Shown: positions 3,878 through 34,378 of the stretch, in pieces
Numbering within the stretch: position 1 is the first letter of the stretch
Layout of the letters: every line of letters starts with the position of its first letter
DNA from: Opitutaceae bacterium
GTDB lineage: Bacteria > Verrucomicrobiota > Verrucomicrobiia > Opitutales > Opitutaceae
Direction: 5' to 3'
Length of the DNA stretch: 64,000 nucleotides
NCBI GenBank assembly: GCA_003151515.1
Contig: PLXS01000025.1
Coordinates: forward strand, 62,001-126,000
Program-made: the position numbers and the translations under genes
Notes under the pieces: generated by a model
Databases searched by the model: none
Seen by the model: only the letters and a program-made list of their open reading frames with translations
What the model was told of the DNA's origin: nothing

Positions 3878-3878
3878 G

Positions 3879-3900: not shown

Positions 3901-4036
3901 TCTTTGTCGAAAGTCAATTCCGGGCGACTCGGCAACCATAAACCACGGCGTTTCAATATCTTGCTTCGACGCGAACGTTGCGCCATCCCCATCCCCCTCG
4001 GGGAAGGCCCCCTTCGCATCGCGCCGCGTGCCCCGC

Positions 4037-6199: not shown

Positions 6200-6678
<479 letters not shown>

Positions 6679-6883
6679 GGGTTGGTTGGCACCTGCGTCC
6701 CCGGCTGTGCGGCCCTTGCCGCGGCCGCCTGTGCGCTGCTGACTGCCGCCATTCTGGAGGGGTCGCCGGGAAAAGTCCACCGCCTAGCATTGAATAAGTA
6801 GCTCGTCTCAGGGGCGCCATCAGTTGGTGCGCTGGCGCATCGTAGCCCATTGCGCCGTTCGCGCCCGTGTGAAAGCATGGGGC

Positions 6884-7621
6884 ATGGATGAGATCCCGCA
6901 GGAATTCACCCTCACCGGAGCGGTCTCCTACTGGAACGTCGATCGCGACAACCTGCTCACGCTGAGGAGCCTGTTCGCGTTCCTGCAGGAGGCGGCCATC
7001 AAGCACGCCGACAAGTGCGGCGCGGGCGCCCACGCGAAGGAGGCCCGGGGCGAGTCCTGGGTGCTCCACAGGATGGCCGTGCGCGTCCACCGCTATCCGC
7101 GCTATGAGGAGGCGCTCAAGGTCTCGACCTGGTCCTCGGGCATCCGGGCCTTCAAGGGCTTCCGCGATTTCCGCGTCCACTGCGGCGACGATCTTGTCGT
7201 TTCGGCGTCCTCGGTCTGGCTCTACCTGAGCCTGGCGACAAAGACCGTCTGCAGGGTTCCCAGGGAGATCGCCGCAGGCTTCCCGACGCGCCCGGCGGAG
7301 GTGTTCTGCAGGGAGCTCGAGAAGATGAGGCTGGAGGCGCCCGGCGAGGGCAGCCCCGCGCGGGACATCTCGGTGAGGTACTCGGACTACGACGCCAACG
7401 ACCATGTGAACAACACGGCCTACTTCGACTACCTGCAGACGGCCCTTGCCTCCAGCGGGCTGCCGGCCCGCCCGGGGCTGCTCCGGGCCGAATTCCTGCG
7501 GGAGATACCGCTCGCGGTGGACCAGGTCACGCTGGCGCTCGAGCGCCGGGGCGACGCGGTCGCATTCAGCCTCGGGCATCCCGGCGGCCTCTTCGCGCGC
7601 GGTCTTGCCGAGGGAGCCTAA
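6884..7621 (+). CDS. Acyl-ACP thioesterase-family protein (double hotdog)
   Basis: 245 residues. The layout is two hotdog halves: an N-terminal half (FTLTGAVSYWNVDRDNLL, then FLQEAAIKHADKCG) and a C-terminal half beginning with SVRYSDYDANDHVNNTAYFDYL, the conserved D-x-N-x-HVNN active-site segment of the FatA/FatB-like acyl-ACP thioesterases. It should release fatty acids from acyl carrier protein or CoA in the cytoplasm. The ATG at 6884 is chosen because the upstream in-frame sequence is not family-like. It is divergent from the molybdoenzyme pair. It is 16 kb from the pigment locus, so a role there is only a possibility. Confidence 0.85.
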   Translation: MDEIPQEFTLTGAVSYWNVDRDNLLTLRSLFAFLQEAAIKHADKCGAGAHAKEARGESWVLHRMAVRVHRYPRYEEALKVSTWSSGIRAFKGFRDFRVHCGDDLVVSASSVWLYLSLATKTVCRVPREIAAGFPTRPAEVFCRELEKMRLEAPGEGSPARDISVRYSDYDANDHVNNTAYFDYLQTALASSGLPARPGLLRAEFLREIPLAVDQVTLALERRGDAVAFSLGHPGGLFARGLAEGA

Positions 7622-7702
7622 GGATGCTCGCGTAGGGCACCGCTTCCGGGAGCCCCGGGGCACCCCGAACGCAACCCGGGGTCAGAGGGAGCGGTTCCAA
7701 CC

Positions 7703-10684: not shown

Positions 10685-10692
10685 GCGCGCGC

Positions 10693-12300: not shown

Positions 12301-12523
12301 AGACTATTGCATCGGGGTTCTTGTTGCCTGCCAAGCGAAGCAGAAGCGTAGGCGCAAAGCGGCCTCGCGCAAACACCGTTTCAGTTTTCCCGAGGACGGG
12401 CGGCATTCGGGGCCGCTGCGCGCCTCGGGCGCCTCGCAATTTATGCGTGGGGAAAGTCAATAGCCGACGAGCGGCGCGGCTTGACTGGTGGCAGAATAGA
12501 GGCATCGGCTGGTCCCAACCGTC

Positions 12524-13978
12524 ATGCCCACGGACACAACACCTGAGCAGAATTCCAAGTACGCCTGGTCGACGATCCTGCGGGCGGCCCCGCCGAAGCG
12601 GCCCGCGACGGACCGCATCCAGGATTTCCACGAGATCTACTCCGACTACGACCAGGAGGTCGCGCGCCAGCAGGCGAGCCGCTGCATCCAGTGCCCCAGC
12701 CCGCTCTGCATGCAGGGCTGCCCCCTTTCCAACCGAATTCCGGAGTGGCTCGCCCTGGCTGCCGAGGGGAAGTTCCTCGAGGCGGCCGCGCTCTCGCGCT
12801 CGACGAGCAACATGCCCGAGATCTGCTCGCGGGTGTGCCCCCAGGAGCGCCTTTGCGAGGGGGCGTGCATACTCAACGCGAAGGGCGAGCCGGTGGCCAT
12901 CGGCTCGGTCGAGCGCTTCATAAACGACTTCGCATTCGACATGGGGGACGTGGCCGCCTGCGCCGCGCCGCCGAACGGCTGGCGGGTGGCGGTCGTGGGG
13001 TCGGGTCCCGGCGGGATAGCCTGCGCCGACGAGCTGTCCCGCGAGGGTACCGCCGTCACGATCTTCGAGTCGCACATGATCCCCGGCGGCCTCCTCGTGA
13101 ACGGGATACCGGCCTTCAAGCTCGAGAAGCAGGTCGTCAACAGGCGCATCGAAAACCTCACGAGGCAGGGGGTCGTCCTCAAGCTCGGGGTGAGGGTCGG
13201 CTGGGACATATCGCTTGCGGACTTGCGGCGCGAATTCGACGCCGTCTTCCTGGGAATCGGGGCCCTTAAGCCGAAGCCGCTCGACATACCGGGGGACAAG
13301 GCGAGCGGGATTGCGGACGCGCTGCCCTTCCTGATCCAGAAAAACGTGAGCTCCCCGCTCGTCAACATACCGCCGATCGAGGTCGCCGGAAGCCGCGTGG
13401 CCGTCCTCGGCGGCGGCGACACGGCGATGGACTGCCTGCGTACGGCGCTGCGCGCCGGGGCCAGCGAGGCGGTCTGCCTCTACCGCCGCGACCTGGCGAA
13501 CATGCCCGGAAGCCGAAAGGAGTACCTCAATGCCATCGAGGAGGGCGCCAAGTTCGAGTTCCTGACCAATCCCGTGGAGATACTGGCGCGCGCCGACGGG
13601 TCCGTTGAGAGCGTGCGCTGCGTGCGCATGGAGCTGGGCGAGCCCGACGCCTCGGGACGGCGCAAGCCGCGCCCGGTCGCCGGCTCCGAGTTCATAGTGC
13701 CGGCGGACTTCATCATCGTGGCCTACGGCTTCGAGCCCATCCCGTTCCCGCCGGGCAGCGACCTGGCGCAGATTGAGACCGACGCCTGGGGCGGGATAGC
13801 CGTCGACAAGAGCCAGATGACAAGCATTTCCGGGGTCTTCGCCGGGGGTGACTCCGTGCGGGGGCCGAGCCTCGTCGTTCACGCCGTGCGGGACGCGCGG
13901 AGCGCGGCCGGCGGCATCCTGCGATACCTCCAGGCGGGGCGCGATGGCGCCAGGGTCGAAGGGCCCGCTCAGGTGTAG
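12524..13978 (+). CDS. gltD: GltD-type NADPH-dependent oxidoreductase (glutamate synthase small-subunit family)
   Basis: 484 residues. The N-terminal Fe-S domain has two cysteine groups, C54/C57/C62/C66 (CIQCPSPLCMQGC) and C101/C105/C111/C115. A FAD-binding GSGPGG motif lies at residues 159-164, and a NADPH site GGGDTAMD near 296-303. This is the full architecture of glutamate synthase beta subunits, which pass NADPH electrons to GltB. No gltB is adjacent, so it could instead serve another partner, as related GltD-like proteins do. It starts at ATG 12524 and overlaps the malic enzyme gene tail-to-tail by 10 bases. Confidence 0.88.
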   Translation: MPTDTTPEQNSKYAWSTILRAAPPKRPATDRIQDFHEIYSDYDQEVARQQASRCIQCPSPLCMQGCPLSNRIPEWLALAAEGKFLEAAALSRSTSNMPEICSRVCPQERLCEGACILNAKGEPVAIGSVERFINDFAFDMGDVAACAAPPNGWRVAVVGSGPGGIACADELSREGTAVTIFESHMIPGGLLVNGIPAFKLEKQVVNRRIENLTRQGVVLKLGVRVGWDISLADLRREFDAVFLGIGALKPKPLDIPGDKASGIADALPFLIQKNVSSPLVNIPPIEVAGSRVAVLGGGDTAMDCLRTALRAGASEAVCLYRRDLANMPGSRKEYLNAIEEGAKFEFLTNPVEILARADGSVESVRCVRMELGEPDASGRRKPRPVAGSEFIVPADFIIVAYGFEPIPFPPGSDLAQIETDAWGGIAVDKSQMTSISGVFAGGDSVRGPSLVVHAVRDARSAAGGILRYLQAGRDGARVEGPAQV

Positions 13979-22956: not shown

Positions 22957-23040
22957 GGTGTGTTGCACAGCCCGGGAGGGCCGCCCGGCTGTTCCGAAGA
23001 ATCGGATTGTCCGTGAGGCGGGATGCTGAAGGCTTGGTCC

Positions 23041-23712
23041 ATGGGACGAACACAGTGGGCCGATGTCGACCGTTACATTAACGCCACCCCTGTCGGGGAG
23101 GACGAGGCACTTGCCGGCGCCATTCGCGCGAGCGCGCAGGCCGGACTTCCCCCGATCCACGTCTCGCCCGCCCAGGGCAAGCTCCTTCACCTGATCGCCC
23201 GGCTGCAGGGCGCGCGCGAGGTGCTCGAGATAGGAACCCTTGGGGGCTACAGCACCATCTGGCTCGCCCGCGCGCTGCCGGACGGCGGGCGCCTCGTTAC
23301 CCTGGAGGCGGAGCCCCGGCACGCGGAGGTCGCCCGCGCAAACCTCGAGCGCGCACAGGTCTCGTCACGCGTGGACCTGCGCGTCGGCAGGGCCCAGGAG
23401 CTGCTGCCCGCCCTGGCGGCCGAAGGGCGCCCGCCCTTTGACCTTGTATTCATAGACGCGGACAAGGCGGGCATACCGGAGTACTTCGCATGGGCCCTGA
23501 GGCTGTCGCGGCGGGGCGCGGCCATCATCGTCGACAACGTGGTGCGGCAAGGGTCTGTCCTGGACGCCGCCAGTACGGACCCGAGCGTTCAGGGGGTGCG
23601 GCGGTTCAACGAGCTTCTTGCCGCAGAGCGGCGCGTGAGCGCGACCACCGTGCAGACCGTCGGGACCAAGGGCTACGACGGCTTCACCCTCGCGGTCGTC
23701 GTGGGCGACTGA
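23041..23712 (+). CDS. Class I SAM-dependent O-methyltransferase (COMT-like)
   Basis: 223 residues. Contains the SAM-binding VLEIGTLGGYSTIWLA, the acidic strand VTLEAEPRHAEVA, FIDADKAGIPEYF with the metal-binding Asp, and IIVDNVVRQG. These are the hallmarks of the cation-dependent family that methylates catechols and caffeoyl-CoA-like phenols. ATG 23041 gives the typical start TQWADVDRYI; an in-frame ATG six codons earlier is the alternative. It ends inside the 3' end of the convergent MMPL gene (40-base overlap). Location at the edge of an aryl-polyene-like locus makes head-group methylation a plausible but unproven role. Confidence 0.88.
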   Translation: MGRTQWADVDRYINATPVGEDEALAGAIRASAQAGLPPIHVSPAQGKLLHLIARLQGAREVLEIGTLGGYSTIWLARALPDGGRLVTLEAEPRHAEVARANLERAQVSSRVDLRVGRAQELLPALAAEGRPPFDLVFIDADKAGIPEYFAWALRLSRRGAAIIVDNVVRQGSVLDAASTDPSVQGVRRFNELLAAERRVSATTVQTVGTKGYDGFTLAVVVGD

Positions 23713-26075
23713 CCCCGCGGGGAGCGCGCCATCGGCGCCAGCTCCGTGATCGCGAGGGCCGACAGGACGATCAGAGCGACCGTGGAGCCGAGCGCCGCCA
23801 CGACCGGAATGCGGCTGATCCCAAGGATGCCGAAGGATGCCGCGGCCGCCAACGCCGACATGCGGATCGACGGAGGGGGCTCCTCCCCGCGCAGCGCGCT
23901 CTCGGCGGAGAAGATCGCATAGTTATGGCTCAGGCAGACCCCGAGGAACGCGCCAAGCAGGTTGAAGAGGTTGAGCGTCGCCCCTGCGAGGCCGAACAGC
24001 CCGAACGCGAAAAGGCACGCGCCGACGGGCACCGCGAATATCCGAACCCCCCTGCGCGGACCGTACAGGACGAGCACGCTCGCCCCGACGATGCCAAGGC
24101 CGACCGAGCTTAGCCTGAGCGCCGAGAGGCGGTACCGGGCGAAGAGGCGGTTCAGGTTCTGCAGCTGGCTGTCGGTCACGGTGTAGGTGCCGGGGGGCGG
24201 CTCCAGCGCCGCACCATCCTCGGCCGTGCTCACAAACCAGCAGAGCGACGGGTCCCGGTGCACGAGTGCCGCCAGGGGCCCGTGCAATGACGCCAGGACG
24301 CCCTCGGCGGCGTTGGCAAACGAGGCGCGCCCGGCCGACTCAAGCTGCGCCCGCCAGGACTCGAAGAACGGGCCGAAGGACGAGGGCTCGAAGCCGTGGC
24401 GCGCCAGGGCCGCCCTGAAATCACCCTCGAACGGGGAGAGGGCGGAGAGCTGCTGCGCCAGCCCCTGCATCTGCTCGCCGCTCGGCAGGACGCTGCCCAG
24501 GCTAAGAAGCGGCGCATCCGGAAAGCGCGAGTCGTGCCAGGCGATGAAGGCCTGAAGGTTGGAGCGGGCCTGCGCGAGGCTCGCCCCCCGCGTCAGATAG
24601 ACGGAGCGCCTCGGCGACTGGCCGAAGAGCGAGCGGACGAAGACGTCGTTGGACTTGAGCGCGGGCGCCGGTATCTCGAGCTCGCGGATGTCGTCCCTCC
24701 ACTGCAGGCGCCAGGGCCCGACGAGGGCGACGGCGGCCCCGGCCGCGAGGAGAAGCCGCGCCGCGGTGCGGCCGGCCGCGCCCCCGCCCGAGAAGCGCCG
24801 CCTGATGAAATCGCGCGTCTCGAGGTACGGGTCGCGGATCTGCGCAAACCAAAGGAACGCGGTGGCGAGCGCGCACACGAGGCCCGCGCTTACGAACACG
24901 CCCAGCTGGCGTATGAGCGGAAGATCGGACCAGAGCAGGATGGAGAAGCCGATGACCGTCGTCAGCGCGCTGGCGAGCAGCGGGCGCAGGAGCCGCCCGG
25001 CCCGCTCCAGGTAGGGCTCGTCCGGGCGCGCCCGCGGCTGCAGGTAGAGGTAGAAGCCGTAATCAACGGCAACGCCGGCCAGGAGGGACCCGAGGACGAA
25101 GACAAGGACGTGAAGGTGCGGCCAGGCCGCCGCCGTCACGACCCAGGCGCCCAGGAGCGAGCCGAGTATGACCGGGGCCAGGTGCGCCGCCCGGTGCGCC
25201 CGGCGCACGCACGCGAGCGCCACCAAGGCCACAGCGGCTATCGAGAGCAGGTTCAGGGTCGCCAGCTCTCGCTGGATCCTGAGGCGGCTCGCGGCGGCAA
25301 AACGGGCGATTCCGGTCCAGCGCAGGTCCGCCCCGGGATCGGCCTTGCGAACCTCGCCCAGCGCCCGCTCAAGAGCGTCAAAGACGGGCTGCTGGCCCGA
25401 ATCCGAGAGCGGGGAGTCCCTGCTCCTGGCCCAGACGAGCCAGTAGTCCCCCGCCCTCCCCTCCGCTGCGCCCGCCTCCGCAAGGCCCGCCATCCGGCCT
25501 GCGAGGCCGGGCACGAGAAGGATCGGGTCGGACGTGAGGATGTCCTGGGTGGCCAGGGCCTCCGGCCTCGCGATGTAGGCCTCCAGATCGGCGGCGGCCC
25601 TTTCGGCCAGCCATGCGCTCCAGGGCGCCGCCGAACCCGAGGACGCGTACTGCCGCCTCCTTGCCTCAAGCCAGCCGGGAAGGAGAAGCTCGAGGCGGCG
25701 CGCAAAGATGGCGCCCGCCAGGTCGTTTCGGGGTCCGGTGTCGGAGAGCTTCAGAGCCTCCGCGATTGCCGGCGATCGCCCGAGGGCCCGCGCGAACATG
25801 CCCGCGAGCCGCCCTCCCCGCTGCTCGTAGGCGCCTTCGTCCTCGCTGGCGCCCCGCGGGACGCTCAGGGCAAGGAGGAGAACCCGAGCCTCATCCTGGG
25901 CGGCGAGGCCCCTCACAATGGCGAGTTCGGGCGACCTCTCGTCGCGGGGGACCAGGTCCAGGATGTCCGTCGAAATCCTGCGCCCGAGGTCGAGGCGCCA
26001 CAGGCAGCACAGGCCCGCGAGGGCCCCCGCGAGCAGCAGTGCGCGCGCGGTCCATTTTTGGCGGCTAAGCTCCAT
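23673..26075 (-). CDS. MMPL/RND-superfamily exporter of the pigment locus
   Basis: 800 residues, two repeats each of one helix, a large periplasmic domain and five further helices. Sequence such as AVDYGFYLYL in the first half and FLGVCLSHNYAIF in the second occupies the proton-relay helices. The family moves lipids and polyketide-like products out of the inner membrane; close relatives sit in every aryl-polyene and xanthomonadin cluster. It is the last gene of the minus-strand biosynthetic operon, 14 bases after the LolA-like gene, and probably hands the finished aryl-polyene lipid to that carrier. Confidence 0.88.
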   Translation of the reverse strand: MELSRQKWTARALLLAGALAGLCCLWRLDLGRRISTDILDLVPRDERSPELAIVRGLAAQDEARVLLLALSVPRGASEDEGAYEQRGGRLAGMFARALGRSPAIAEALKLSDTGPRNDLAGAIFARRLELLLPGWLEARRRQYASSGSAAPWSAWLAERAAADLEAYIARPEALATQDILTSDPILLVPGLAGRMAGLAEAGAAEGRAGDYWLVWARSRDSPLSDSGQQPVFDALERALGEVRKADPGADLRWTGIARFAAASRLRIQRELATLNLLSIAAVALVALACVRRAHRAAHLAPVILGSLLGAWVVTAAAWPHLHVLVFVLGSLLAGVAVDYGFYLYLQPRARPDEPYLERAGRLLRPLLASALTTVIGFSILLWSDLPLIRQLGVFVSAGLVCALATAFLWFAQIRDPYLETRDFIRRRFSGGGAAGRTAARLLLAAGAAVALVGPWRLQWRDDIRELEIPAPALKSNDVFVRSLFGQSPRRSVYLTRGASLAQARSNLQAFIAWHDSRFPDAPLLSLGSVLPSGEQMQGLAQQLSALSPFEGDFRAALARHGFEPSSFGPFFESWRAQLESAGRASFANAAEGVLASLHGPLAALVHRDPSLCWFVSTAEDGAALEPPPGTYTVTDSQLQNLNRLFARYRLSALRLSSVGLGIVGASVLVLYGPRRGVRIFAVPVGACLFAFGLFGLAGATLNLFNLLGAFLGVCLSHNYAIFSAESALRGEEPPPSIRMSALAAAASFGILGISRIPVVAALGSTVALIVLSALAITELAPMARSPRGQSPTTTARVKPS

Positions 26076-26089
26076 CGCGGCGCCTATGA

Positions 26090-26725
26090 TCAGCGGAAGA
26101 ACCGCTTGAGTTCGTCGGGGCCGAAGTCCTGCCCAGTGCGCGCCGCCCCCACGTCGATCTCGATCCGCTGCGCCGCCGACCTGCGAAATTCCAGCCGGCG
26201 CACCTCGGGGCCCGAGCCGCCGACCTTGATCTCTCCCAGGGACGCCGCAAGCGAGGGGTCCCGGGGAACGAAGTCCAGCGTCCAGTCCCCGCCGGCGCGC
26301 CGTCCCCGTATCTCGAAGCGCGAATAGAGAGGCGCCAGATCGAACCTGAGGATCGGCAGGAGCGACGCGAGAGACCCCGCCTCGCGGGAGCCCGCGGGAA
26401 GCGTCCGCACCCGGCCGTCCGCATCCCTAAGGACGAGCCCGGCGCTGTCCACGATGACGATGCTTGGTTGCGGATCGGTGTACTGGAGGCTTAGGCCCTT
26501 TTCCCTCGATATCCGAAGCACGCCGTGAAGGACGAGCGGATCGTGGCGGAATGTGAAATACCTGCGCTCCGTGAAGGGCGCGACGACCGTGGGTCGCGCC
26601 GCCAGCGCGTCCAAGAGCGGTCTCCAGTCCGCGGAGTTGCCGGGATCAAGAACCGTGCCGGCGTCCTGGGCGGCGAGGGCCGAGGCGAAGGCGACGAAGG
26701 CCGCGATGGCGAGCGGCCGCATCAT
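26090..26725 (-). CDS. LolA-like outer-membrane lipid/lipoprotein carrier
   Basis: 211 residues starting at ATGATG 26725; a signal peptide ends near ASALAAQDA. The mature part has the short-strand pattern of LolA: FTERRYFTFRHDPLVLHGVLRI, LSLQYTDPQPSIVIVDSAGLVLRD in two pieces, then WTLDFVPRD, and a C-terminal GPDELKRFFR. LolA normally ferries lipoproteins across the periplasm; the version in aryl-polyene clusters is thought to carry the pigment lipid. Its start overlaps the glycosyltransferase stop by 4 bases (ATGA), and the MMPL gene follows after 14 bases. Confidence 0.85.
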   Translation of the reverse strand: MMRPLAIAAFVAFASALAAQDAGTVLDPGNSADWRPLLDALAARPTVVAPFTERRYFTFRHDPLVLHGVLRISREKGLSLQYTDPQPSIVIVDSAGLVLRDADGRVRTLPAGSREAGSLASLLPILRFDLAPLYSRFEIRGRRAGGDWTLDFVPRDPSLAASLGEIKVGGSGPEVRRLEFRRSAAQRIEIDVGAARTGQDFGPDELKRFFR

Positions 26726-27465
26726 GAAGACTGGGCTCCCCGGCGTCCGGCAATCAGCCACGCGATGAGGCGCGCATGCATCGCCACCATCCGCGCATTG
26801 TCCCCGAAGTAGCGGAAATGGGAGACTCCGCCGCTCTCCTTGCTCACGTAGACGCACGGCGCATCAAGGTTGGCGGCCGGAACTCCGCTCCACGCGAGCC
26901 TCACGGCGACCTCGGGGTCGAAGTCGTAGCCCCGCGCGCCGCTCGTCGAGGCGAGGGCGGCCACCAGCGCGGTGAGCGGATAGACCCGAAAGCCGAAGAG
27001 CGGGTCCGCCGCCCCCTTCCCAAGCGTCTCCGCGCGCGCAAGCCACGCGCTCAGCCTGCGTCCGGCAAGGCGGATCCAGGGGGCGTCGGGGCCGAACACC
27101 GGGCGCCCGCATACAAGGGTGCCGGGCGAGCGCATCGATGCCTCCATGAAGGCGCCTATGCGCCCGGCGGGATGCTGGCAGTCGGCGTCCATGACCAGGG
27201 CGTGGGTTCGGCCCTCGCCCAGCGCCTGGGTGGCCCCCGTTAGCACCGCCGCCCCCTTGCCGCCGCGCCGCTCCCGCACGATGACGCGAAGCCCGGGCCG
27301 GGGCGCGCCGCCCGCCAGCAGCCCGTCGTGGCTCCCGTCCGTGCTCCCGTCCACGACGACCCACACGTTCTCCCAATGTCCGAGCGCCCCGGCCACCGTG
27401 CGCGCAAGCAGGCCGCCTGGGTTGAACGCGGGTATGAGGACTATGTGGGAGCCGCGGCGGGTCAT
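26722..27465 (-). CDS. GT2-family glycosyltransferase of the pigment locus
   Basis: 247 residues. N-terminal GT-A fold: HIVLIPAFNPGGLLARTV, VVVDGSTDGS, and MDADCQHP with the metal-binding D-x-D. A C-terminal hydrophobic helix (MHARLIAWLIAG) suggests membrane association. Aryl-polyene loci often encode a GT2, sometimes fused to an acyltransferase, that builds the polar lipid head to which the polyene is attached. Here the acyltransferase is a separate gene overlapping upstream by 4 bases, and the LolA-like gene overlaps downstream by 4 bases. Sugar donor and acceptor are unknown. Confidence 0.88.
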   Translation of the reverse strand: MTRRGSHIVLIPAFNPGGLLARTVAGALGHWENVWVVVDGSTDGSHDGLLAGGAPRPGLRVIVRERRGGKGAAVLTGATQALGEGRTHALVMDADCQHPAGRIGAFMEASMRSPGTLVCGRPVFGPDAPWIRLAGRRLSAWLARAETLGKGAADPLFGFRVYPLTALVAALASTSGARGYDFDPEVAVRLAWSGVPAANLDAPCVYVSKESGGVSHFRYFGDNARMVAMHARLIAWLIAGRRGAQSS

Positions 27466-28217
27466 CCGGTCGCCTTGCTGGAGAGCACCTCGCAGATTCG
27501 CAGCTCCACGATGCGGGTCAACTCCTTGGCGGATCGCCCGGGCTCGTAGTCCCAAGTCCGGTCGAGCGTGATCTCGACCCAGCATGGAAGCACGGCCGGG
27601 GCCGGCCAGAGCGGGCGCCCTCGCACGCCCAGCTCGGGCGACGCCCGAATGATCATCAGGCTAACCGGCGCCTTGGCCTGGGCCGCTATCAGCGCGAAAC
27701 CGGGCTTCATCTTGCCGAGCATGGTGCCGGCGGCAGTGCGGGTACCCTCGGGGAACACGAGCATCGACTGGCCAGCGGCGACCTTGGCGCCTGCGGCCTT
27801 GATGATGTCGAGGCCCGTGTCGCCGCGGACGTAGCCGGCCATGGCCGCCGCGGGCCCGATGGCCGGGTTGCGCATGAGCGCCGGCTTAAAAATGCATACG
27901 GCGTCCGGCAGGCGAGCGAGGATGAGCGTCGCGTCGACGATCGACGGGTGGTTCGCAACGTAAACGCTCCCCCTCGGCAGCGGGGCGTCGAATCCTATCC
28001 AGGTCACCTTCGTAATGCCGCTGGCGCGCAGCCAAGCGAGCCAGCCCGCAAGGATCCACCTGATCGCGCCGCGCACCGCGGGCTCGAACGCGGCGCGCCG
28101 GGGAAAGAGCGTCAGCACGAGGCACGCCAGGTTCAGCAGCAGCCCGGCTGCCCCGAACAGGGCCCAGGACAGGTAAAAGAGGAACACAAGCCAGGCACGT
28201 CTGACGCGCTTCTTCAC
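27462..28217 (-). CDS. PlsC-like 1-acyl-glycerol-phosphate-type acyltransferase
   Basis: 251 residues with an N-terminal hydrophobic region (about 9-37) and the acyltransferase motifs NHPSIVDATL (H-x4-D) and FPEGTRT. It transfers an acyl chain from ACP or CoA to a hydroxyl group at the membrane. In this operon it probably acylates a lipid carrier with the aryl polyene or a partner fatty acid. The GTG start overlaps the previous gene's TGA by 4 bases. Distinct from PlsY at 56 kb, so it is not the only phospholipid acyltransferase here. Confidence 0.88.
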   Translation of the reverse strand: MKKRVRRAWLVFLFYLSWALFGAAGLLLNLACLVLTLFPRRAAFEPAVRGAIRWILAGWLAWLRASGITKVTWIGFDAPLPRGSVYVANHPSIVDATLILARLPDAVCIFKPALMRNPAIGPAAAMAGYVRGDTGLDIIKAAGAKVAAGQSMLVFPEGTRTAAGTMLGKMKPGFALIAAQAKAPVSLMIIRASPELGVRGRPLWPAPAVLPCWVEITLDRTWDYEPGRSAKELTRIVELRICEVLSSKATG

Positions 28218-29104
28218 AGCGGGCGGAAGTTGAACCAGTCGTAGGGGTGCGCGCGCAGGTAGGACTCGACGCGCGCGAGGAACGCCTGGAAGTGCGCCCT
28301 TGCGCGCTCCAGCCCCGCCGCCCGCGGCTCGCCGGCGAGGGGTTCGAACGCCGGCGAAGCGTGCACGACGGAGACATCCGGCCCGCCCGGGACGCCGACG
28401 GACAGGAAAACCGGCCTGTTGAAGATGAATGCCAGGTGGTAGATCGTGATAGGGAATGTGCGCTTCGCCCCGAGGAAATCAAAGGTCTCGGTTCGCGAGC
28501 TGTGCTCGGCCCGGTCGCATTGGAGCGCCACCGCTTCCCCGCTCGCGCAGGCCTCCTTCAGGGCGAAGAGAAGGTCCCCGGGATCGTTCACCCAGATGAA
28601 ACGGACGAGTCCGCCCAGCCGCCGCGCAAGCGCTTCCGTGTCTTCGGAGTTGCCCACCCTGTGCCGCACGATGTGGACGCGCCGGCGGTCCTGCAAGGCC
28701 AGGAGGAAGCCCGTGAGGTCGGAGTTTCCGACGTGGAGGGTGCCGAGGAACGCGGGGCCGCCCGACTTGAGCCACCTGCCAAAGTCACCCGAGTCGGGGC
28801 CAAGGACGAGCCGGTGGGCCGTCCCGTTCGCCACCCGCAGCTTGAGCATGAGCGACTCGCACAGGGAGAAAAAGTGCCGAAACTGGTCCAGGAGGCGCGG
28901 CTCTCGGCCCAGCGCGGCCCGAAGGTAGTCCCGGGAGGCGCGCCTCTGCTGGGACATGCTTGCCAGGGCAACCCACGTGCCCGCGGCCCTGAGCGGCCGG
29001 AAGACCGGTTCGGGCAGCGCCAGGTCGGCAAGCCTCAGAAACTGGAGCCCACGGGAGGGTCCCGGATTGCGCGTGCTGGCAAAGACCTGCCGCGTCAGCG
29101 CCAT
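28214..29104 (-). CDS. LpxL/HtrB-like lipid acyltransferase
   Basis: 296 residues. Resembles the lauroyl/myristoyl acyltransferase family: the LGTLHVGNSDLTGFLL segment corresponds to the H-x4-D/E region (His and Asp present), then come VALQCDRAEHSSRTETFDFLG in part, and FRPL at the end. The family adds acyl chains to lipid A-like acceptors; homologues occur in aryl-polyene loci as acyltransferases for attachment of the polyene. ATG 29104 is used, overlapping the previous gene by 10 bases. No clear membrane helix beyond a weak N-terminal one. Confidence 0.8.
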   Translation of the reverse strand: MALTRQVFASTRNPGPSRGLQFLRLADLALPEPVFRPLRAAGTWVALASMSQQRRASRDYLRAALGREPRLLDQFRHFFSLCESLMLKLRVANGTAHRLVLGPDSGDFGRWLKSGGPAFLGTLHVGNSDLTGFLLALQDRRRVHIVRHRVGNSEDTEALARRLGGLVRFIWVNDPGDLLFALKEACASGEAVALQCDRAEHSSRTETFDFLGAKRTFPITIYHLAFIFNRPVFLSVGVPGGPDVSVVHASPAFEPLAGEPRAAGLERARAHFQAFLARVESYLRAHPYDWFNFRPL

Positions 29105-29748
29105 TCGATGAGCAGCCTCCATCCCGCGGCGGCCTGGCAGTCGAGGTTCCTCCTGTCCCTGAGCGCGTCGAAGAGCGCGGAAAGCCCGAGTTCGCCCCCG
29201 CCGTCCCTGGGCTCCAGGCGGACAAGCCCGAGCGGCGCCGCGCCCGGCGCCTTGGCGGCGGCCAGCGCGAACGCGTACGTGCGCTCGCTGGCCAGCTTGT
29301 GCTCAAGGAGCCAGGTGCCGCGCTCCTCGCCTCCGCATACGATGACCCGCTGCGCCGGCGAGAGCGCCGCGGCCCGGAGCGCCTGGAAGGCGAGGAGGGC
29401 GCCGCCGGAGAGCGGCATGAGCTCGTCCACCGGGGTCTGCCGCCCGATCATGAGCTGCTGCACCGCGCTCGGCTGGATCGACGTCTGAAAGAGTGTCGGG
29501 CTCGCCGCGGGGAAGCTGTCGATGAAGTCCTCGAGCGCCCGGCTCTCGGCGTAACCGGAGGCGTAGACGATCGCGTCTCCGGGCGACGGCTGAGCCCTTG
29601 CGACGGCGTTGCCGACGAGCATTCCGAGCGTCGTCATGCGCCGGGCGGCGCCCGCGGGGAAGCAGCCCTTCAGCCGCTCGCGGGTTGCGGCGGGCGCCTC
29701 CTCGCCGGGGTCATCGGCGAACGCGGAATGGATGTGAAGCTCAAGCAT
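29095..29748 (-). CDS. Short ketosynthase-like protein (chain-length-factor type, ApeC-like)
   Basis: 217 residues, about half the size of a ketosynthase. YASGYAESRALEDFIDSF, SPTLFQTSIQPSAVQQLMIGR and LSGGALLAFQALRAA correspond to the N-terminal half of a thiolase fold, but there is no active-site Cys nor the two His motifs. Such truncated proteins (Pfam beta-ketoacyl synthase N-terminal-like) occur in aryl-polyene loci, where one (ApeC) acts as chain-length partner of the ketosynthase. ATG 29748 overlaps the ketosynthase stop by 8 bases; a TTG two codons earlier is possible. Confidence 0.8.
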   Translation of the reverse strand: MLELHIHSAFADDPGEEAPAATRERLKGCFPAGAARRMTTLGMLVGNAVARAQPSPGDAIVYASGYAESRALEDFIDSFPAASPTLFQTSIQPSAVQQLMIGRQTPVDELMPLSGGALLAFQALRAAALSPAQRVIVCGGEERGTWLLEHKLASERTYAFALAAAKAPGAAPLGLVRLEPRDGGGELGLSALFDALRDRRNLDCQAAAGWRLLIEWR

Positions 29749-30850
29749 GGCCAATCATGAAGGCGCCGTGGGCCCCCCCGAAGGCGTTGCTGGCGCAGAC
29801 GGCGGCATCGTAGCCCCGGTTGTCGAAGCCCTGCATGGAGACGTTGGCCCCCATGGATGGAGGCGCGCCCGCCACGGTGCCCGGCGTGCGGCCGGATCGG
29901 ATGGACTCCAGGGCCACCGCCATCTCCACGAGGCCGCAGCTTCCGAGCGTGTGCCCAAGGCTGCCCTTCCAGCCGACGACGGGCGCGGATGGGAAGGCGC
30001 GGGCTGCCGAGGCGACCTCAAGCCTGCCAGCCTCCAGTGTTCCCGTCCCATGGCCCTTGAACCACACGCGCCTGCCGCGGGCCGCGCGCGCGGTCGGCTC
30101 CAGGCAGCGCGCGAAGCCGGAGCCGTCCTGCCGGTTCGCCGTGAAGTGGTGCATCTCGTTGAAGAGACTCTGCCCCTCGATGGCGAATTCACCCCGGTCG
30201 AGCGAAAGCACGGCGAAGGCGGCACCGTCGCCCAGGCCGATCGCACCAGTGGGCCTCTCGCTGTAGGGCGACGGGAACTCGGCGTTGAGGATCTTCAGGG
30301 CGTGAAACCCCCCGGCGACAAAGGGGCTCAGGAAGTCGAAGGACACGACGAGCGACTCGTCAGCGAGGCCCGCTTGAAGCACCCTCGAGGCCTGAAGGAG
30401 GCCGAGGTGCGCGGACACGCACGCGAGCGAAAGCACCGAGACGTCGGGCCCCCAGCCGAGCTCGGCGCCCAGGCGCTCGGCGCAGGCGGGCGGCGCGCCC
30501 CAGCGGGCGAAGGCTGCGCTGCCGAAACGGCGCAGCGCATAGACCCCGCCGACGCCAAAGTTGCTTCCCGTGAGGAAAACGGGGCGTCGCGGCCCCCCCC
30601 AGTCTCCCGCCGGGACAGCCGCGCACAGGCTTTTGACGGCGGCCATCCATGCGGGCGGGTCCTCCTCGTCCAGGAGGCGCCCGGGCATGAGGGCCAGCGG
30701 CACAGGATCGCCGCCCTCGCGACCCAGCACCGGAACCGGGCGAAGCGCCCTGTCGCCGCGCAGCAGGGCCGCATGGGTCGCCGCCGCGTCGCCCAGGGGC
30801 GTCGAGCAGCCGTAGGCCACGATGCGCACCGGTGCGGCGGGCTCGGCCAT
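29741..30850 (-). CDS. Beta-ketoacyl-ACP synthase of the pigment locus
   Basis: 369 residues, a complete FabF-like condensing enzyme. Catalytic Cys144 lies in SLACVSAH, His267 in KGHGTGT, Lys295 and His300 in WKGSLGHTLGSCG; the C-terminus has NAFGGAHGAFMIG. It would extend the hydroxybenzoyl starter with malonyl units on the acyl carrier protein encoded 22 bases upstream, probably as a complex with the short ketosynthase-like protein encoded immediately downstream (8-base overlap). All catalytic residues are present, so it is likely active. Confidence 0.88.
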   Translation of the reverse strand: MAEPAAPVRIVAYGCSTPLGDAAATHAALLRGDRALRPVPVLGREGGDPVPLALMPGRLLDEEDPPAWMAAVKSLCAAVPAGDWGGPRRPVFLTGSNFGVGGVYALRRFGSAAFARWGAPPACAERLGAELGWGPDVSVLSLACVSAHLGLLQASRVLQAGLADESLVVSFDFLSPFVAGGFHALKILNAEFPSPYSERPTGAIGLGDGAAFAVLSLDRGEFAIEGQSLFNEMHHFTANRQDGSGFARCLEPTARAARGRRVWFKGHGTGTLEAGRLEVASAARAFPSAPVVGWKGSLGHTLGSCGLVEMAVALESIRSGRTPGTVAGAPPSMGANVSMQGFDNRGYDAAVCASNAFGGAHGAFMIGHA

Positions 30851-30872
30851 TCGTGGGAGGCGGCGGGTGCCG

Positions 30873-31148
30873 TCAGGTCGGCAGCCGTGCCGGGTCGCCG
30901 CGCTCGCGGATGTACGCCGCCAGGGCGGCGACGCTCGCCAGGGCCTGGCGGGCCTCCTCGCTGCTGGCTATCTTGATCCCGAACTCCCGCTCCATGCGAA
31001 CCACGAGCTCAAGCGCGTCGATGGAGTCAAGCGACAGGCCCCCGCCAATCAGCGGCTCGTTGTCGGCGATGTCCGCGGGAGCGACCTCCTCGAGGCGCAG
31101 GGTTTCGACGATCAGCTGTTTCAGCCGGGGGAGAAGCGGATCGGGCAT
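30873..31148 (-). CDS. Acyl carrier protein of the pigment locus
   Basis: 91 residues. The phosphopantetheine site is LSLDSIDALEL with Ser42. The acidic helix 2/3 region and the overall size fit a discrete carrier protein of type II systems. It is the first gene of the minus-strand operon and is divergent from the ligase gene that is predicted to load it; 119 bases separate the two starts. It should hold the starter and growing polyene for the ketosynthase. Confidence 0.9.
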   Translation of the reverse strand: MPDPLLPRLKQLIVETLRLEEVAPADIADNEPLIGGGLSLDSIDALELVVRMEREFGIKIASSEEARQALASVAALAAYIRERGDPARLPT

Positions 31149-31161
31149 AGACTGTTGCAGG

Positions 31162-31191
31162 ATGATGACCGCAATTGGCGCCGGCTTTCAA
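31162..31191 (-). promoter_or_regulatory. Candidate promoter of the pigment operon
   Basis: On the minus strand TTGAAA (31191-31186) is followed after 18 bases by CATCAT (31167-31162), five and four matches to the sigma-70 boxes. It would give a leader of only a few bases before the carrier-protein ATG at 31148, so it may direct near-leaderless transcription. Confidence 0.3.
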
Positions 31192-31267
31192 CCCGTAATC
31201 GGCCGGAGGCAAACCGGGCCGTCGAAATTTACTCGCCGGGGCGCCCGCCGGAAACACCCTTGGGGCG

Positions 31268-32653
31268 ATGAGCGAGTCCATGTTCAAGCTCTGGATGGCG
31301 ACCGCGCGGCGGGCTCCCTCGGCCGTCGCCGTCACGGACCGCGAGGCGCGGCGGGACTGGACGCGGGAGGGCCTCTCGCGGGCCGCCGGGGAGCTTGCGG
31401 CCTCTCTGGCCAGGGGCGGCGGGGCGGCGCTCGCGGGCCACCGGGTCGCCATGGCCGTGCCCAACGGCGCCGAATGGTTCAAAGTCTTCCTCGCGCTGCT
31501 TGGCGCAGGCGCTTCGCCGGTGCCGATGGATTCGTCCGAGCCCGAGGTGGCCCAGCGCGCCCTGGCGGCGTCCGCCGGGGCCTCTCACCTCTGGAGCGCC
31601 GGCGCGCTGCACCGCCTTGCATCCCGCTCGCGCCGGGCGGCCCCGGGGGAATGCCTGGTGAAGCTCACGAGCGGAAGCAGCGGCGCGCCCAAGGCGCTTT
31701 CCGTAACCCACGCGCAGCTTGCGGCGGACGGGCGCCAGATCTGCGAGTCCATGGGCATCGGCCCCGGGGACGTGAACCTGGCGGCAATCCCGCTTGGGTA
31801 CTCCTACGGTCTGGGCAACGTCGTGGCGCCGCTTCTGCTGCAGGGCAGCAGGTCGGTCTGCATTTCGGCCGCGCTGCCGCACGCCGTGGCCGCTGCGGTG
31901 CGCGAGGACGGCGCCACGGTGTTTCCCGCGGTGCCACCGATTCTGCGCGCGCTCGTCGAGAGCGATGTCCCCGCCGGTTCGCTCAAGGGCCTGAGGCTGG
32001 TCATCTCGGCCGGCTCGCCGCTCTCCCGCGATCTGGCGCAGGCCTTCGCCGCGAAATTCGGCATCCGCGTTCACGGGTTCTACGGGACGAGCGAGACCGG
32101 GGGGATAGCCTATGACAGGAACGGCGAGGCGACCCTCGAGGGCCGAAGCGTGGGGACGCCCCTCTCGGGGGTGAGCGTGACGGCCGCGCCAGGCGGGCGC
32201 CTCAGGGTCGCAAGCCCGGCCGTGGCAGGGCGCGGCGCGTTTACTCCTGCGGACCGCGCGGTGATCGACAAGGCGGGCGAGCTTGTCCTGCAGGGCCGCA
32301 CGGACCGCATGGTCAAGATTGCCGGTCGAAGGGTCGACCTCGCGGAGGTTGAGGCGGCGCTCAGGTCCGTCCCCAGGGTGCGCGACGCCCACGCGGCCAT
32401 GGACACGGGGCCCGGCGCGTCCCTAGGGGCCGCGGTGGCGACGGACCACAGCGCAGCCGCGGTCAGACGGATCCTCAGGGGGCGGATCGCCCCATGGAAA
32501 GTCCCGGAGCGGATCGTCGTGCTCGGGGAGTTTCCCCGCACGGCGCGCGGAAAGACGGACGTGGCGAAGCTGCGTCAGCTGCTCGCCGCGCCGCGAATCG
32601 CGACCTCGATCTCCACGTTTAGCGCCTCGCGGCAGACGTCGGCGCGCAGGTAG
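31268..32653 (+). CDS. AMP-dependent aryl-acid ligase loading the pigment ACP
   Basis: 461 residues of the acyl/aryl-CoA synthetase superfamily. P-loop LTSGSSGAPK at residues 133-142, FYGTSETGG near 271-279, LQGRTDRMVKIAGRRVDL near 341-358, and RTARGKTD with the catalytic Lys429. It should activate a hydroxybenzoic acid as adenylate and transfer it to the carrier protein encoded divergently next to it, priming the polyene. The last 26 codons run antisense to the 3' end of the chorismatase gene (79-base overlap), so the enzymes that make and load the starter face each other. Confidence 0.85.
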   Translation: MSESMFKLWMATARRAPSAVAVTDREARRDWTREGLSRAAGELAASLARGGGAALAGHRVAMAVPNGAEWFKVFLALLGAGASPVPMDSSEPEVAQRALAASAGASHLWSAGALHRLASRSRRAAPGECLVKLTSGSSGAPKALSVTHAQLAADGRQICESMGIGPGDVNLAAIPLGYSYGLGNVVAPLLLQGSRSVCISAALPHAVAAAVREDGATVFPAVPPILRALVESDVPAGSLKGLRLVISAGSPLSRDLAQAFAAKFGIRVHGFYGTSETGGIAYDRNGEATLEGRSVGTPLSGVSVTAAPGGRLRVASPAVAGRGAFTPADRAVIDKAGELVLQGRTDRMVKIAGRRVDLAEVEAALRSVPRVRDAHAAMDTGPGASLGAAVATDHSAAAVRRILRGRIAPWKVPERIVVLGEFPRTARGKTDVAKLRQLLAAPRIATSISTFSASRQTSARR

Positions 32654-33480
32654 CTAACGAGGTCTCCGCGCGACAGGACGGAATCCGCCAGGGCGCGCGC
32701 GACCGCCGGCTGATCCGAGGGATCCCTGAGGTATACCTTGAAGTGGCGGGTGCACCCGCTGCCCTCCCCCAGCCTGTCCCCGAGCCCGCAGGCGCGCGAG
32801 ATGAGCGCCAGGTTCTCGACCGTCCGGCCGACCTGGCCGCGCGTGTCGTGCGCCGCGACCGTCGCGTGGCCGAAAATCGCCGAGGTGCCGGATATGAAGG
32901 CGTCGAGCCCCCCCCGCCTCTCGACGAGCGTGGCCCGCGCGAAGCTCGGCGGCCTCGACCCGTGCTCCGGCGGGTAGCGGTACGCGGGAACCTGAACCGG
33001 GCTCTCGAAGTGCTTGGCGGGCCGGTCTCCTGCCAGGAAGACCACCGTGAGACGGCCGTCCGGGCCCCCGACCGCCGACGCGGCGGGCAGCGAGCCGTGA
33101 AAGTCCGGCCCGAGGGCACGCTCAAAGGCGAGCGAGCGGCCCCGGCAGAACGACCGGTAGTTCTCAAGCCCGTCACCTCCGTCCTCGTTTATGCGCGGCA
33201 CGAAGTTCCATATCCTGTACAGGCTGCTACCGCGGGCGGCCTCCAGGAGGTCCCCGTATGCCCTGCCCGCTGCGGCCTCGAGGCCCGGGCCGGCATCCGC
33301 CTGGCCGAACCCGACAAGGACGCCGTCGCCGCGCCAGATGCGGAAGGCGCCCGCGACCCCGACCGCCCTGACCCCTTCGGCAATGTTCTCCGTTGGCGCA
33401 CCGTCCAGGACAGGCACCCCGGTATCGAGCACGACCGCGGGCCCGCCGCCCGCGAGGCCGAGGGCGAAGGAGAACGTCAT
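32575..33480 (-). CDS. Chorismatase (FkbO/Hyg5/XanB2 family), probable hydroxybenzoate synthase
   Basis: 301 residues from the ATG at 33478-33480; the frame stays open upstream but that part is not family-like. RIWNFVPRIN (89-98), ENYRSFCRGRSLAFE (106-120), VPAYRYPPEHGSRPPSFARA (164-183 in part), ISGTSAIFGH and the late ADVCREALNVEIE are family hallmarks; the final Glu is the proposed proton donor. The family splits chorismate into pyruvate and a dihydroxycyclohexadienoate, 3-hydroxybenzoate or 4-hydroxybenzoate; XanB2 supplies hydroxybenzoate for xanthomonadin. Neighbouring ligase and ACP genes favour a starter-unit role. Which isomer is made cannot be told. Confidence 0.87.
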   Translation of the reverse strand: MTFSFALGLAGGGPAVVLDTGVPVLDGAPTENIAEGVRAVGVAGAFRIWRGDGVLVGFGQADAGPGLEAAAGRAYGDLLEAARGSSLYRIWNFVPRINEDGGDGLENYRSFCRGRSLAFERALGPDFHGSLPAASAVGGPDGRLTVVFLAGDRPAKHFESPVQVPAYRYPPEHGSRPPSFARATLVERRGGLDAFISGTSAIFGHATVAAHDTRGQVGRTVENLALISRACGLGDRLGEGSGCTRHFKVYLRDPSDQPAVARALADSVLSRGDLVSYLRADVCREALNVEIEVAIRGAASS

Positions 33481-33616
33481 ACAAGTCGACCTACAAGCAA
33501 GCCGGTGCATGCGACAAGCAATTTCCGGTTTGTTTGCCGCCACGGCGCGCAATACGTTCGGTAATGGACACGAGCGTCTGGTCGGCGAATTCTCCCCGGA
33601 TGCCCCCGGGGGCGGC

Positions 33617-34378
33617 GTGAGACCCTGGATACCGGTCGCCGTCTCGTTCAAGGCCTGCGCGGTCGCGCTCGCCTTTTCGCACCACCCGGCCGCGGCGTTG
33701 CTCGCCTTCTTCGCCCCGGACCCCTGGATATTCATGCAGTTCGTCCTTGCGCGCTCCCAGGCGTTCGGCCCGGCGGTGACCCGCTTCGCGACGCCGCGGC
33801 GCGAAGTGTGGCTCACGATCGACGACGGCCCGCACCCCGAGAGCACCCCGGCGGTCCTTGAGCTCCTGCGCGGCCACGGCGCCCGGGCGACCTTCTTCCT
33901 CGTGGGCGAGCAGGTGAGGAGCCATCCCGAGCTTGCGAGGCGGATCGCCGCCGAGGGGCACGGGATCGGCAACCACACGCTAAGCCATCCCGCATGGAGC
34001 TTCTGGAGCGCCCTGCCGGGGCGCACGGCCCATGAGATCGACGGCTGCGTTGCCGCGCTGCTTCTTTCAAACGCCCCCTTCCAGCGCCTCTTCCGGCCCC
34101 CCGTGGGCGTCAGGAACCCATTTCTGGATCCCCTGCTGGCGTCGCGCGGCATGCGCCTCGTCCTGTGGAGCGCTCGCGGGTTCGACGGCGGGCGGCGGCG
34201 CCCGCCGGCGGCCCTGCGGGCAATCTCGCGCGGAATCCGCCCCGGGGCGATCCTCCTAGCCCACGAGGGCGGCCCCGGCGCTTCGCGCCGCCGGGAGTTC
34301 CTGGCCCTGCTGCTCGACCACCTCTCGAGGGAGGGCTACTCGTGCGTGATCCCGGAGGACGGGGACCTGCGCTGCTAG
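33617..34378 (+). CDS. Polysaccharide deacetylase (NodB-homology) with N-terminal membrane segment
   Basis: 253 residues from GTG 33617; an in-frame ATG at 33509 would add 36 residues. Two hydrophobic segments come first, then the NodB domain: TIDDGPHP with the metal and catalytic Asp pair, GNHTLSHP with the two metal His, and FRPPVGVRNP. It removes N- or O-acetyl groups from a glycan or glycolipid outside or at the inner membrane. It is divergent from chorismatase (136 bases) and ends on a CTAG shared with the convergent GH3 gene. It may modify the glycosylated lipid made by the adjacent locus, but this is inference. Confidence 0.83.
   Translation: MRPWIPVAVSFKACAVALAFSHHPAAALLAFFAPDPWIFMQFVLARSQAFGPAVTRFATPRREVWLTIDDGPHPESTPAVLELLRGHGARATFFLVGEQVRSHPELARRIAAEGHGIGNHTLSHPAWSFWSALPGRTAHEIDGCVAALLLSNAPFQRLFRPPVGVRNPFLDPLLASRGMRLVLWSARGFDGGRRRPPAALRAISRGIRPGAILLAHEGGPGASRRREFLALLLDHLSREGYSCVIPEDGDLRC

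What the first reader, a model, noticed from the sequence alone, without database searches (positions are those of the whole stretch)
23673..34378. Chorismate-fed aryl-polyene/xanthomonadin-like locus lacking its own reductive enzymes
Sequence shows chorismatase, aryl-AMP ligase, ACP, complete ketosynthase (Cys144, His267, His300), short ketosynthase-like partner, two acyltransferases, GT2, LolA-like carrier and MMPL exporter, most joined by 4- to 22-base junctions. Known aryl-polyene (Ape) and xanthomonadin loci contain these parts but also ketoreductase, dehydratase, second ACP and thioesterase genes. None of those lies between 23.0 and 34.4 kb. Either the reductive genes are elsewhere in the genome, general fatty-acid enzymes are borrowed, or the product is a less reduced aryl polyketide lipid. 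A chorismatase rather than an ammonia-lyase as starter source links it to the Xanthomonas type, in an organism that does not look like a proteobacterium.
Basis: partly seen in the sequence, partly recalled or inferred. Interest (0 to 1): 0.75.

Follow-up and report, generated by a model that had tools for sequence, protein, structure and literature searches.

The report
Aryl-polyene-like locus without its reductases
A bacterium of the phylum Verrucomicrobiota carries the starter, chain-building and export genes of a known family of yellow membrane pigments, but not the enzymes that normally reduce and dehydrate the growing chain, and the related loci examined in its family share that gap.

Summary
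The locus encodes a chorismatase, AMP ligase, ApeE-type ACP, ketosynthase with a half-size chain-length factor, two acyltransferases, GT2, LolA-like carrier, MMPL exporter and an overlooked polysaccharide deacetylase. The ketosynthase pair matches solved ApeO-ApeC; the partner's profile finds nothing else in the PDB. The locus has no ketoreductase, dehydratase or thioesterase; the genome has no ApeP match and nothing over cut-off for ApeI or ApeQ.

The gap is shared. KS orthologues occur in 34 of 95 genomes searched (own included), three of them single-contig. In 113 loci, many cut by contig ends, no ketoreductase lies among the core genes. ApeI-like and ApeP-like dehydratases sit at two fixed places in Opitutales loci outside Opitutaceae; in the Opitutaceae loci those places hold none and are mostly closed. 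The window copy also lacks the second KS, second ACP and halogenase-like genes of many relatives.

Best reading: an Opitutaceae branch of aryl-polyene/xanthomonadin-type biosynthesis whose reduction and dehydration are borrowed in trans. Against it, Acinetobacter FabG is reported unable to replace ApeQ, so an unreduced aryl polyketide remains possible. New variant of a known kind; antiSMASH already labels one relative's locus arylpolyene.

The parts
23673..26075 (-). MMPL/RND-family transporter (ApeM-like exporter)
   Evidence: PF03176 32.9 bits; 23% to E. coli ApeM, E 2e-14
26090..26725 (-). LolA-like periplasmic carrier (ApeL-like)
   Evidence: PF19574 27 bits; weak blastp to ApeL, E 0.003
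26722..27465 (-). family-2 glycosyltransferase (N-terminal half of ApeJ)
   Evidence: PF00535 59.8 bits; 32% to ApeJ residues 1-231, E 2e-32
27462..28217 (-). PlsC-type acyltransferase (ApeD-like)
   Evidence: PF01553 46.7 bits; 30% to ApeD, E 4e-19
28214..29104 (-). LpxL-type acyltransferase (C-terminal half of ApeJ)
   Evidence: PF03279 16.4 bits, below cut-off; 24% to ApeJ residues 296-545, E 3e-8
29095..29748 (-). half-size chain-length factor (ApeC-like)
   Evidence: no Pfam/NCBIfam hit; profile A2 finds only the ApeC chains 7f28_A and 6qsp_B in PDB at E up to 10; fold match 6qsp_B E 2.8e-10
29741..30850 (-). elongating ketosynthase (ApeO-like), Cys144/His267/His300
   Evidence: NF006618 88 bits, below cut-off 407; profile A1 best PDB hits 7f28_B 3e-27 and 6qsp_A 4e-22, the ApeO chains; tree
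30873..31148 (-). acyl carrier protein (ApeE-like)
   Evidence: PF00550 37.7 bits; 52% to ApeE, E 1e-21
31268..32653 (+). AMP-forming aryl-ACP/CoA ligase (ApeH/ArcT-like role)
   Evidence: PF00501 140 bits; weak to ApeH, E 2e-10
32575..33495 (-). FkbO/Hyg5-family chorismatase
   Evidence: PF21168 82.7 bits; TIGR04444 169.5 bits, below cut-off 325 (longer frame); phmmer to 5ag3_A 3e-39 and FkbO 4bps 2e-32
33617..34378 (+). polysaccharide deacetylase (start uncertain; the open frame begins at 33191)
   Evidence: PF01522 92.5 bits on the longer frame; also in 19 of 55 titled loci that hold seven core genes
31149..31267 (.). 119-b divergent gap where many relatives keep FAD520, ACP2 and KS2 genes
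   Evidence: neighbourhoods of L055, L049 and others

Best explanation
An aryl-polyene/xanthomonadin-type type II polyketide locus of the Opitutaceae. The chorismatase makes a hydroxybenzoate (or dihydrodiol) from chorismate. The ligase loads it on the ApeE-like ACP. The ApeO-ApeC-like KS-CLF pair extends it with malonyl units. Acyl- and glycosyltransferases attach the chain to a lipid anchor, and LolA/MMPL carry it to the outer membrane. Ketoreduction and dehydration are not encoded in the locus and are supplied in trans, most simply by the genome's FabG and a FabZ-type enzyme (LpxC-FabZ, the FabZ-like gene of L010, or the ACP-dehydratase fusion of L012). Shown: gene content, KS-CLF identity, absence of ketoreductase and dehydratase across the family's loci examined. 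Inferred: every chemical step and the trans supply.
For: KS and CLF profiles pick out solved ApeO and ApeC. KS1 plus ApeO are split from FabF, ApeR and KS2 with 96/94 support. ACP 52% to ApeE. The genes are under constraint, dN/dS 0.13-0.39 against a same-genus copy. Loci outside Opitutaceae that keep both dehydratases still have no ketoreductase among the core genes: 0 of 7 distinct loci (L151, L173, L174 and L177, the last on the same contig as L061; L060, L062, L063). A dehydratase needs a reduced substrate, so ketoreduction in trans looks ancestral. FabG is the single match at E<=1e-50 in 31 of the 34 KS1 genomes. ApeO-ApeC alone gives fully elongated polyene in vitro, the second KS raising throughput (PMC8358021, passages); loss of apeF leaves partial pigment in E. 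coli (PMC8253772, passages and section 6).
Against: A. baumannii FabG gave almost no product in place of ApeQ in vitro (PMC8041823 section 9). The window's FabG has the FabG-type Phe and lid, as do the other 28 family FabGs read, with or without the locus, so no adaptation is visible. In E. coli all cluster genes except perhaps apeR seem required for full assembly or attachment (PMC8253772, passages), so its FAS does not make good the loss; the same paper cites Grammbitter et al. for ApeR being needed for initiation, and the window has neither ApeR nor KS2.
Confidence: 0.55

Rival explanations
1. The product is not a polyene: the KS-CLF makes an unreduced or barely reduced aryl polyketide (or does few extensions) that is attached to a lipid or glycolipid and exported by the same machinery. 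Loss of both dehydratases in Opitutaceae marks a change of product.
For: Both dehydratase genes, reported to act as one ApeI-ApeP heterodimer in Acinetobacter (PMC8041823, passages), are absent together in Opitutaceae loci while KS, CLF, ACP and exporter stay. No ApeQ-type reductase over cut-off in any of the 34 KS1 genomes (in genomes with more than 25 first-look candidates only 25 were scored; own genome 14 of 14). FabG is reported unable to replace ApeQ.
Against: No cyclase or aromatase was seen in the locus to stabilise a poly-keto chain. ASA1, whose KS1 locus is L046, forms whitish-yellow colonies that turn yellow (PMC12193912, passages), weak evidence for pigment.
Confidence: 0.25
2. A dedicated but unrecognised reductive partner set lies elsewhere, above all the L012 operon (ACP-dehydratase fusion, KS, SDR). 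Its KS groups with the KS2 of the relatives' loci, and it encodes the four domain types that the window locus lacks.
For: KS2 plus L012-type KS form a 100/100 clade, apart from ApeR. ACP2 of L055 matches the L012 ACP part, E 9e-13. The ACP-dehydratase protein is matched over most of its length (E<=1e-85) in 70 of 95 genomes (my count).
Against: It is kept at 77-90% identity in genomes without the locus (G001, G006, G015), so it has another job. Its SDR scores no higher with ketoacyl-ACP reductase models than with 3-ketosphinganine reductase, and it lies near a serine-palmitoyltransferase-like gene. In two outgroup copies (L192, L199) no SDR was matched beside the KS.
Confidence: 0.12
3. The locus is decaying or the missing genes fall in assembly gaps.
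For: The genome is 92.4% complete in 42 contigs. The window copy lacks KS2, ACP2 and both halogenase-like genes that many relatives keep. Three relatives' long stretches (L054, L127, L132) keep little more than KS, CLF and LolA, with an SDR some kilobases away outside the core, so reduction of the locus does happen.
Against: All ORFs of the window locus are intact with dN/dS below 1. Single-contig genomes (G016, G025, G060) also lack ketoreductase and dehydratase in the locus and have no ApeP or ApeQ match over cut-off (for ApeQ 25 of 37 and 25 of 31 candidates were scored in G025 and G060).
Confidence: 0.06

Closest known systems
Aryl polyene (ape) cluster of E. coli CFT073 / Xenorhabdus doucetiae / Acinetobacter
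   Same: ApeO-ApeC-type KS-CLF, ApeE-type ACP, AMP ligase, ApeD acyltransferase, ApeJ (here split into GT2 and LpxL-type genes), ApeL LolA, ApeM MMPL
   Different: no ApeQ, ApeI, ApeP or ApeK-like gene by HMM; none of the eleven genes is a blastp match to ApeF-, ApeR-, ApeG-, ApeN- or ApeB-type roles; a chorismatase is in the locus; another phylum
Arcuflavin (arc) and xanthomonadin (xan) clusters
   Same: chorismatase, AMP ligase, ACP, KS with an N-terminal-KS-domain partner, acyltransferases, GT, LolA, exporter and (arc) a polysaccharide deacetylase; relatives also have halogenase-like genes (PMC3949708 passages)
   Different: no reductase (arcH) or dehydratases (arcI, arcS) in the locus; halogenase-like genes absent from the window copy; no dialkylresorcinol genes seen in the locus
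antiSMASH 'arylpolyene' region 4 of Congregicoccus parvus ASA1
   Same: its KS1 orthologue (G025:C1:5422711-5423799) lies inside the published region 5,402,678-5,443,805 (PMC10927696 passages)
   Different: the passages I read discuss neither gene content nor missing reductive enzymes

Membership tests
Aryl polyene (APE) cluster | KS paired with a half-size chain-length factor (ApeO-ApeC) | tested here: met
Aryl polyene (APE) cluster | ApeE-type starter ACP | tested here: met
   52% to ApeE; NF006617 63.8 bits, just below cut-off 70
Aryl polyene (APE) cluster | dedicated ketoreductase (ApeQ) | tested here: not met
   none in the locus; TIGR01831 over cut-off in 1 of 95 genomes (TAV5), 0 of 34 with KS1; of 13 own-genome SDR matches 11 were aligned and none has the ApeQ-type Leu (the L010 FabI-like and the second L012 SDR were not aligned)
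Aryl polyene (APE) cluster | dedicated dehydratases (ApeI, ApeP) | tested here: not met
   no PF22817 match, PF22818 only below cut-off (LpxC-FabZ) in own genome; none in the locus, fusions included
Aryl polyene (APE) cluster | thioesterase ApeK | tested here: not met
   no 4HBT match over 20 bits in 113 loci, window included; model reach unproven beyond its training set
Aryl polyene (APE) cluster | ApeD/ApeJ attachment and ApeL/ApeM export proteins | tested here: met
   (LolA match weak)
Aryl polyene (APE) cluster | product is an aryl polyene | not testable with these tools
   needs chemistry
Xanthomonadin/arcuflavin type | XanB2/FkbO-family chorismatase as starter source | tested here: met
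   product specificity not decided
Xanthomonadin/arcuflavin type | halogenase | tested here: not met
   absent in the window locus; HAL in 15 of 55 and FAD520 in 20 of 55 titled loci with seven core genes
Xanthomonadin/arcuflavin type | aromatic acid specificity of the ligase | tested here: inconclusive
   AMP-binding family only

The most novel reading that the evidence does not exclude
Opitutaceae have turned an aryl-polyene pathway into one that makes unreduced or little-reduced aryl polyketide lipids: an ApeO-ApeC-type synthase working without any ketoreductase or dehydratase of its own, with the dehydratase pair lost after the split from other Opitutales.
Probability: 0.2. Interest if true: 0.7.

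Novelty: new variant of a known kind. Interest (0 to 1): 0.5.

Why it matters
[quoted passage not shown] A bacterial family that keeps the synthase, loading and export genes while dropping those steps shows either that housekeeping fatty-acid enzymes can serve aryl polyene synthesis, against the one FabG test I read, or that the pathway makes another product. Both are directly testable in cultured Opitutaceae.

Tried and rejected
ApeI/ApeP/ApeQ families in the own genome: nothing over cut-off. FabG adaptation: Phe and lid are the same in 15 KS1-positive and 14 KS1-negative genomes (one of 30 sequences not read). L010 operon as donor: its KS is in 86 of 95 genomes, so it is not locus-linked. 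Remnants or fusions of dehydratases: in 113 loci the only hits over 8 bits outside the carriers were of 8.5-12 bits and lay outside the two slots (L090 and L161, one contig; L094 and L165, one contig). My first tables showed only the best role per open frame and so hid fused domains, such as ApeI on the ligase in L097 and L098; searched every frame for dehydratases and SDRs and changed nothing for the KS1 loci except adding L166. Prints on Verrucomicrobiota: searches with 'arylpolyene', 'aryl polyene' and 'xanthomonadin' gave antiSMASH-type mentions (passages of PMC10927696, PMC12193912 and PMC9865893 read); I saw nothing on missing reductive genes, in this library and in those passages only.
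Full report
1. Where it is. The window is G000:C11:62001-126000 of a 3.6-Mb, 42-contig, 92.4%-complete genome. In the collection of titled genomes, 77 of the 80 kept KS1 loci carry titles of Verrucomicrobiota taxa, mostly Opitutaceae/Opitutia; two say only 'bacterium' and one 'PVC group bacterium' (105 candidates encoded a relative, 25 were not kept). Two unnamed relatives have the chromosome lengths published for Opitutaceae TAV5 (G017; PMC4358385, search listing; length) and for ASA1 (G025; PMC10927696, passages; length). I therefore call the window's family f1 Opitutaceae; this is an inference. ASA1's authors place it in Alterococcaceae.

2. A home-made gene caller and six-frame ORFs give one - strand run ACP, KS, half-size KS-like gene, LpxL-type and PlsC-type acyltransferases, GT2, LolA-like, MMPL with overlaps of 4-10 b and gaps of 14 and 22 b; a + strand ligase; a - strand chorismatase; a + strand polysaccharide deacetylase. 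The reported catalytic residues are right and invariant in 14 aligned orthologues.

3. What the pieces are. The KS1 family profile finds ApeO chains 7f28_B and 6qsp_A first among PDB chains. The profile of the short partner finds only the ApeC chains 7f28_A (E 1e-7) and 6qsp_B (E 1e-5) at E up to 10, and its predicted fold (pLDDT 85.8) matches 6qsp_B best (6QSP is named ApeO-ApeC in PMC8358021, passages, which also holds the term 7F28). In a maximum-likelihood tree KS1 and ApeO lie on one side of a 96/94 branch, with FabF, ApeR, KS2 and other KSs on the other; the KS1 branch is long. Against E. coli CFT073 (L003) the ACP is 52% to ApeE, GT2 and the LpxL-type gene match the two halves of ApeJ, PlsC matches ApeD, MMPL matches ApeM; LolA and ligase match weakly; the short partner gives no blastp match to ApeC but its HMM, built without ApeC, scores 27-28 bits on it. 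The chorismatase matches 5ag3/5a3k and FkbO 4bps.

4. The gap is shared. KS1 orthologues (E below 1e-90) are in 34 of 95 genomes searched, own included: 29 of 61 in f1 and 5 of 34 in other families of the order. I examined 113 locus stretches: the window, 32 unnamed loci (27 of f1, 5 outside; G007, on a short contig, was not fetched) and 80 titled loci; several unnamed and titled loci are the same contigs, and many are cut by contig ends: 55 of the 80 hold seven core genes, 44 also ligase and chorismatase. SDR domains over 20 bits occur in 7 of 113 stretches (L048, L054, L064, L127, L132, L136, L165), all outside the core genes; L136 has its SDR just beyond the core end. Thioesterase-like domains: 0 of 113. 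Dehydratases: in the 28 f1 stretches none. Among titled loci the small ApeI-like gene is in 6 of 64 adjacent PlsC-GT2 pairs and the ApeP-like gene in 4 of 44 adjacent MMPL-ligase pairs. The carriers are titled Pelagicoccus (L151) or Opitutales (L166, L173, L174, L177, L178), none Opitutaceae. Of the 5 unnamed loci outside f1, 4 carry both (L060-L063), L064 neither. 'ApeI-like' is weakly founded: the L151 copy scores 26.1 bits with PF22818 (cut-off 28.5) and the L062 copy does not match it; the ApeP-like copies of L060 and L062 pass PF22817. Where absent, the spaces are mostly closed: median 82.5 b for PlsC-GT2 (58 pairs, only L118 over 300 b) and 29 b for MMPL-ligase (40 pairs; L157 has 468 b, and L116, L125, L129 and L133 have 1.5-1.6 kb), the last with a radical-SAM match in three copies (L085, L086, L087). 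L153 (Opitutae) and L179 (Puniceicoccaceae) also lack dehydratases.

5. Exceptions to the locus plan. Ligase and chorismatase are not near the KS in all long stretches: L105, L123, L138 and L158 lack both, L107 the chorismatase; L127 and L132 lack most core genes, as does the unnamed L054. LolA was not recognised in 17 of the 55 fuller loci, probably through divergence.

6. Genome-wide searches. Own genome: ApeP-like 0 matches, ApeI-like one match under cut-off, an LpxC-FabZ fusion. Relatives: ApeP-like over cut-off in 5 of 95; two (G017, G056) have ape-like loci without a KS1 orthologue, three (G063, G068, G079) have it in the KS1 locus. ApeQ-type TIGR01831 over cut-off in 1 of 95, TAV5 (at most 25 candidates a genome were scored, own 14 of 14). 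FabG is the single match at E<=1e-50 in 31 of the 34 KS1 genomes; G010, G044 and G045 have a second. The FabGs read keep the FabG-type Phe where ApeQ has Leu; the meaning of that residue is from PMC8041823 (passages and section 9).

7. What the window copy lacks. Many relatives carry between ligase and ACP a halogenase-like FAD gene, a second ACP and a second KS, and a CmlS-like halogenase nearby: in titled loci with seven core genes KS2 39 of 55, ACP2 40, FAD520 20, HAL 15. The window has 119 b there. It keeps ApeO-ApeC and the ApeE-type ACP; whether that suffices without ApeR is disputed between the in vitro results (PMC8358021) and those cited in PMC8253772. dN/dS against the same-genus copy L056 is 0.13-0.39 (highest chorismatase 0.39, CLF 0.37, ligase 0.34), against the more distant L088 0.17-0.68; dS is near 1, so the ratios are rough.

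8. Mechanism. Loading, extension, attachment and export follow by homology. Ketoreduction and dehydration must be borrowed or not used. For borrowing: outgroup loci keep dehydratases without a ketoreductase, which makes sense only if the ketoreductase acts in trans; candidates are in the genome. Against: the published FabG test and no visible FabG change. The L012 operon encodes ACP, dehydratase, KS and SDR, and its KS is the closest kin of KS2, but it is kept in genomes without the locus and its neighbourhood looks sphingolipid-like.

9. Known or new. antiSMASH has labelled the ASA1 locus arylpolyene, so the class is not new. The missing reductive steps and the two-place loss of the dehydratases were not in the passages I read. 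I rate it a new variant of a known kind, interest 0.5.

Noticed in passing
L010 (G000:C11:40000-59999) 3342-10982, outside the window: Operon of KS, ACP, two phytoene-desaturase-like FAD proteins, FabZ-like, FabI-like, a PRK09258 KAS III (451 bits, over cut-off) and a haloalkane-dehalogenase-like hydrolase; the KS is in 86 of 95 genomes. It recalls Ole-type hydrocarbon genes (recalled, untested).
   Followed up: partly
L012 (G000:C11:266000-285999) 4925-12773, outside the window: ACP-dehydratase fusion, KS and SDR next to a diglucosyl-diacylglycerol-synthase-like and near a serine-palmitoyltransferase-like gene; the fusion is matched over most of its length in 70 of 95 genomes.
   Followed up: partly
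L048 17280-18599; MMPL-ligase gap of L085, L086, L087: A B12/radical-SAM protein near TIGR04072 (rSAM_ladder_B12, 337 bits against cut-off 360) lies beside MMPL in L048; radical-SAM matches lie in three loci at the place where outgroups have the ApeP-like dehydratase.
   Followed up: partly
L098 (G056:C28:56000-75999): An ape-like locus with an ApeP-like gene, a ligase-fused ApeI-like domain and a halogenase-like gene but no SDR found in the stretch.
   Followed up: partly
L054, L127, L132: Long stretches in which KS1 and CLF stay while most core genes are gone, each with an SDR some kilobases away.
   Followed up: no
window 23023-23712 (+): O-methyltransferase (PF01596) convergent with the MMPL gene, overlapping its end by 40 b; also near the locus in L055. 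A head-group methylase is possible but untested.
   Followed up: no
G000:C38:55622-55954 (L100): A further ACP-like stretch (50% to the L012 ACP part) not found by the PP-binding search of the own genome.
   Followed up: no
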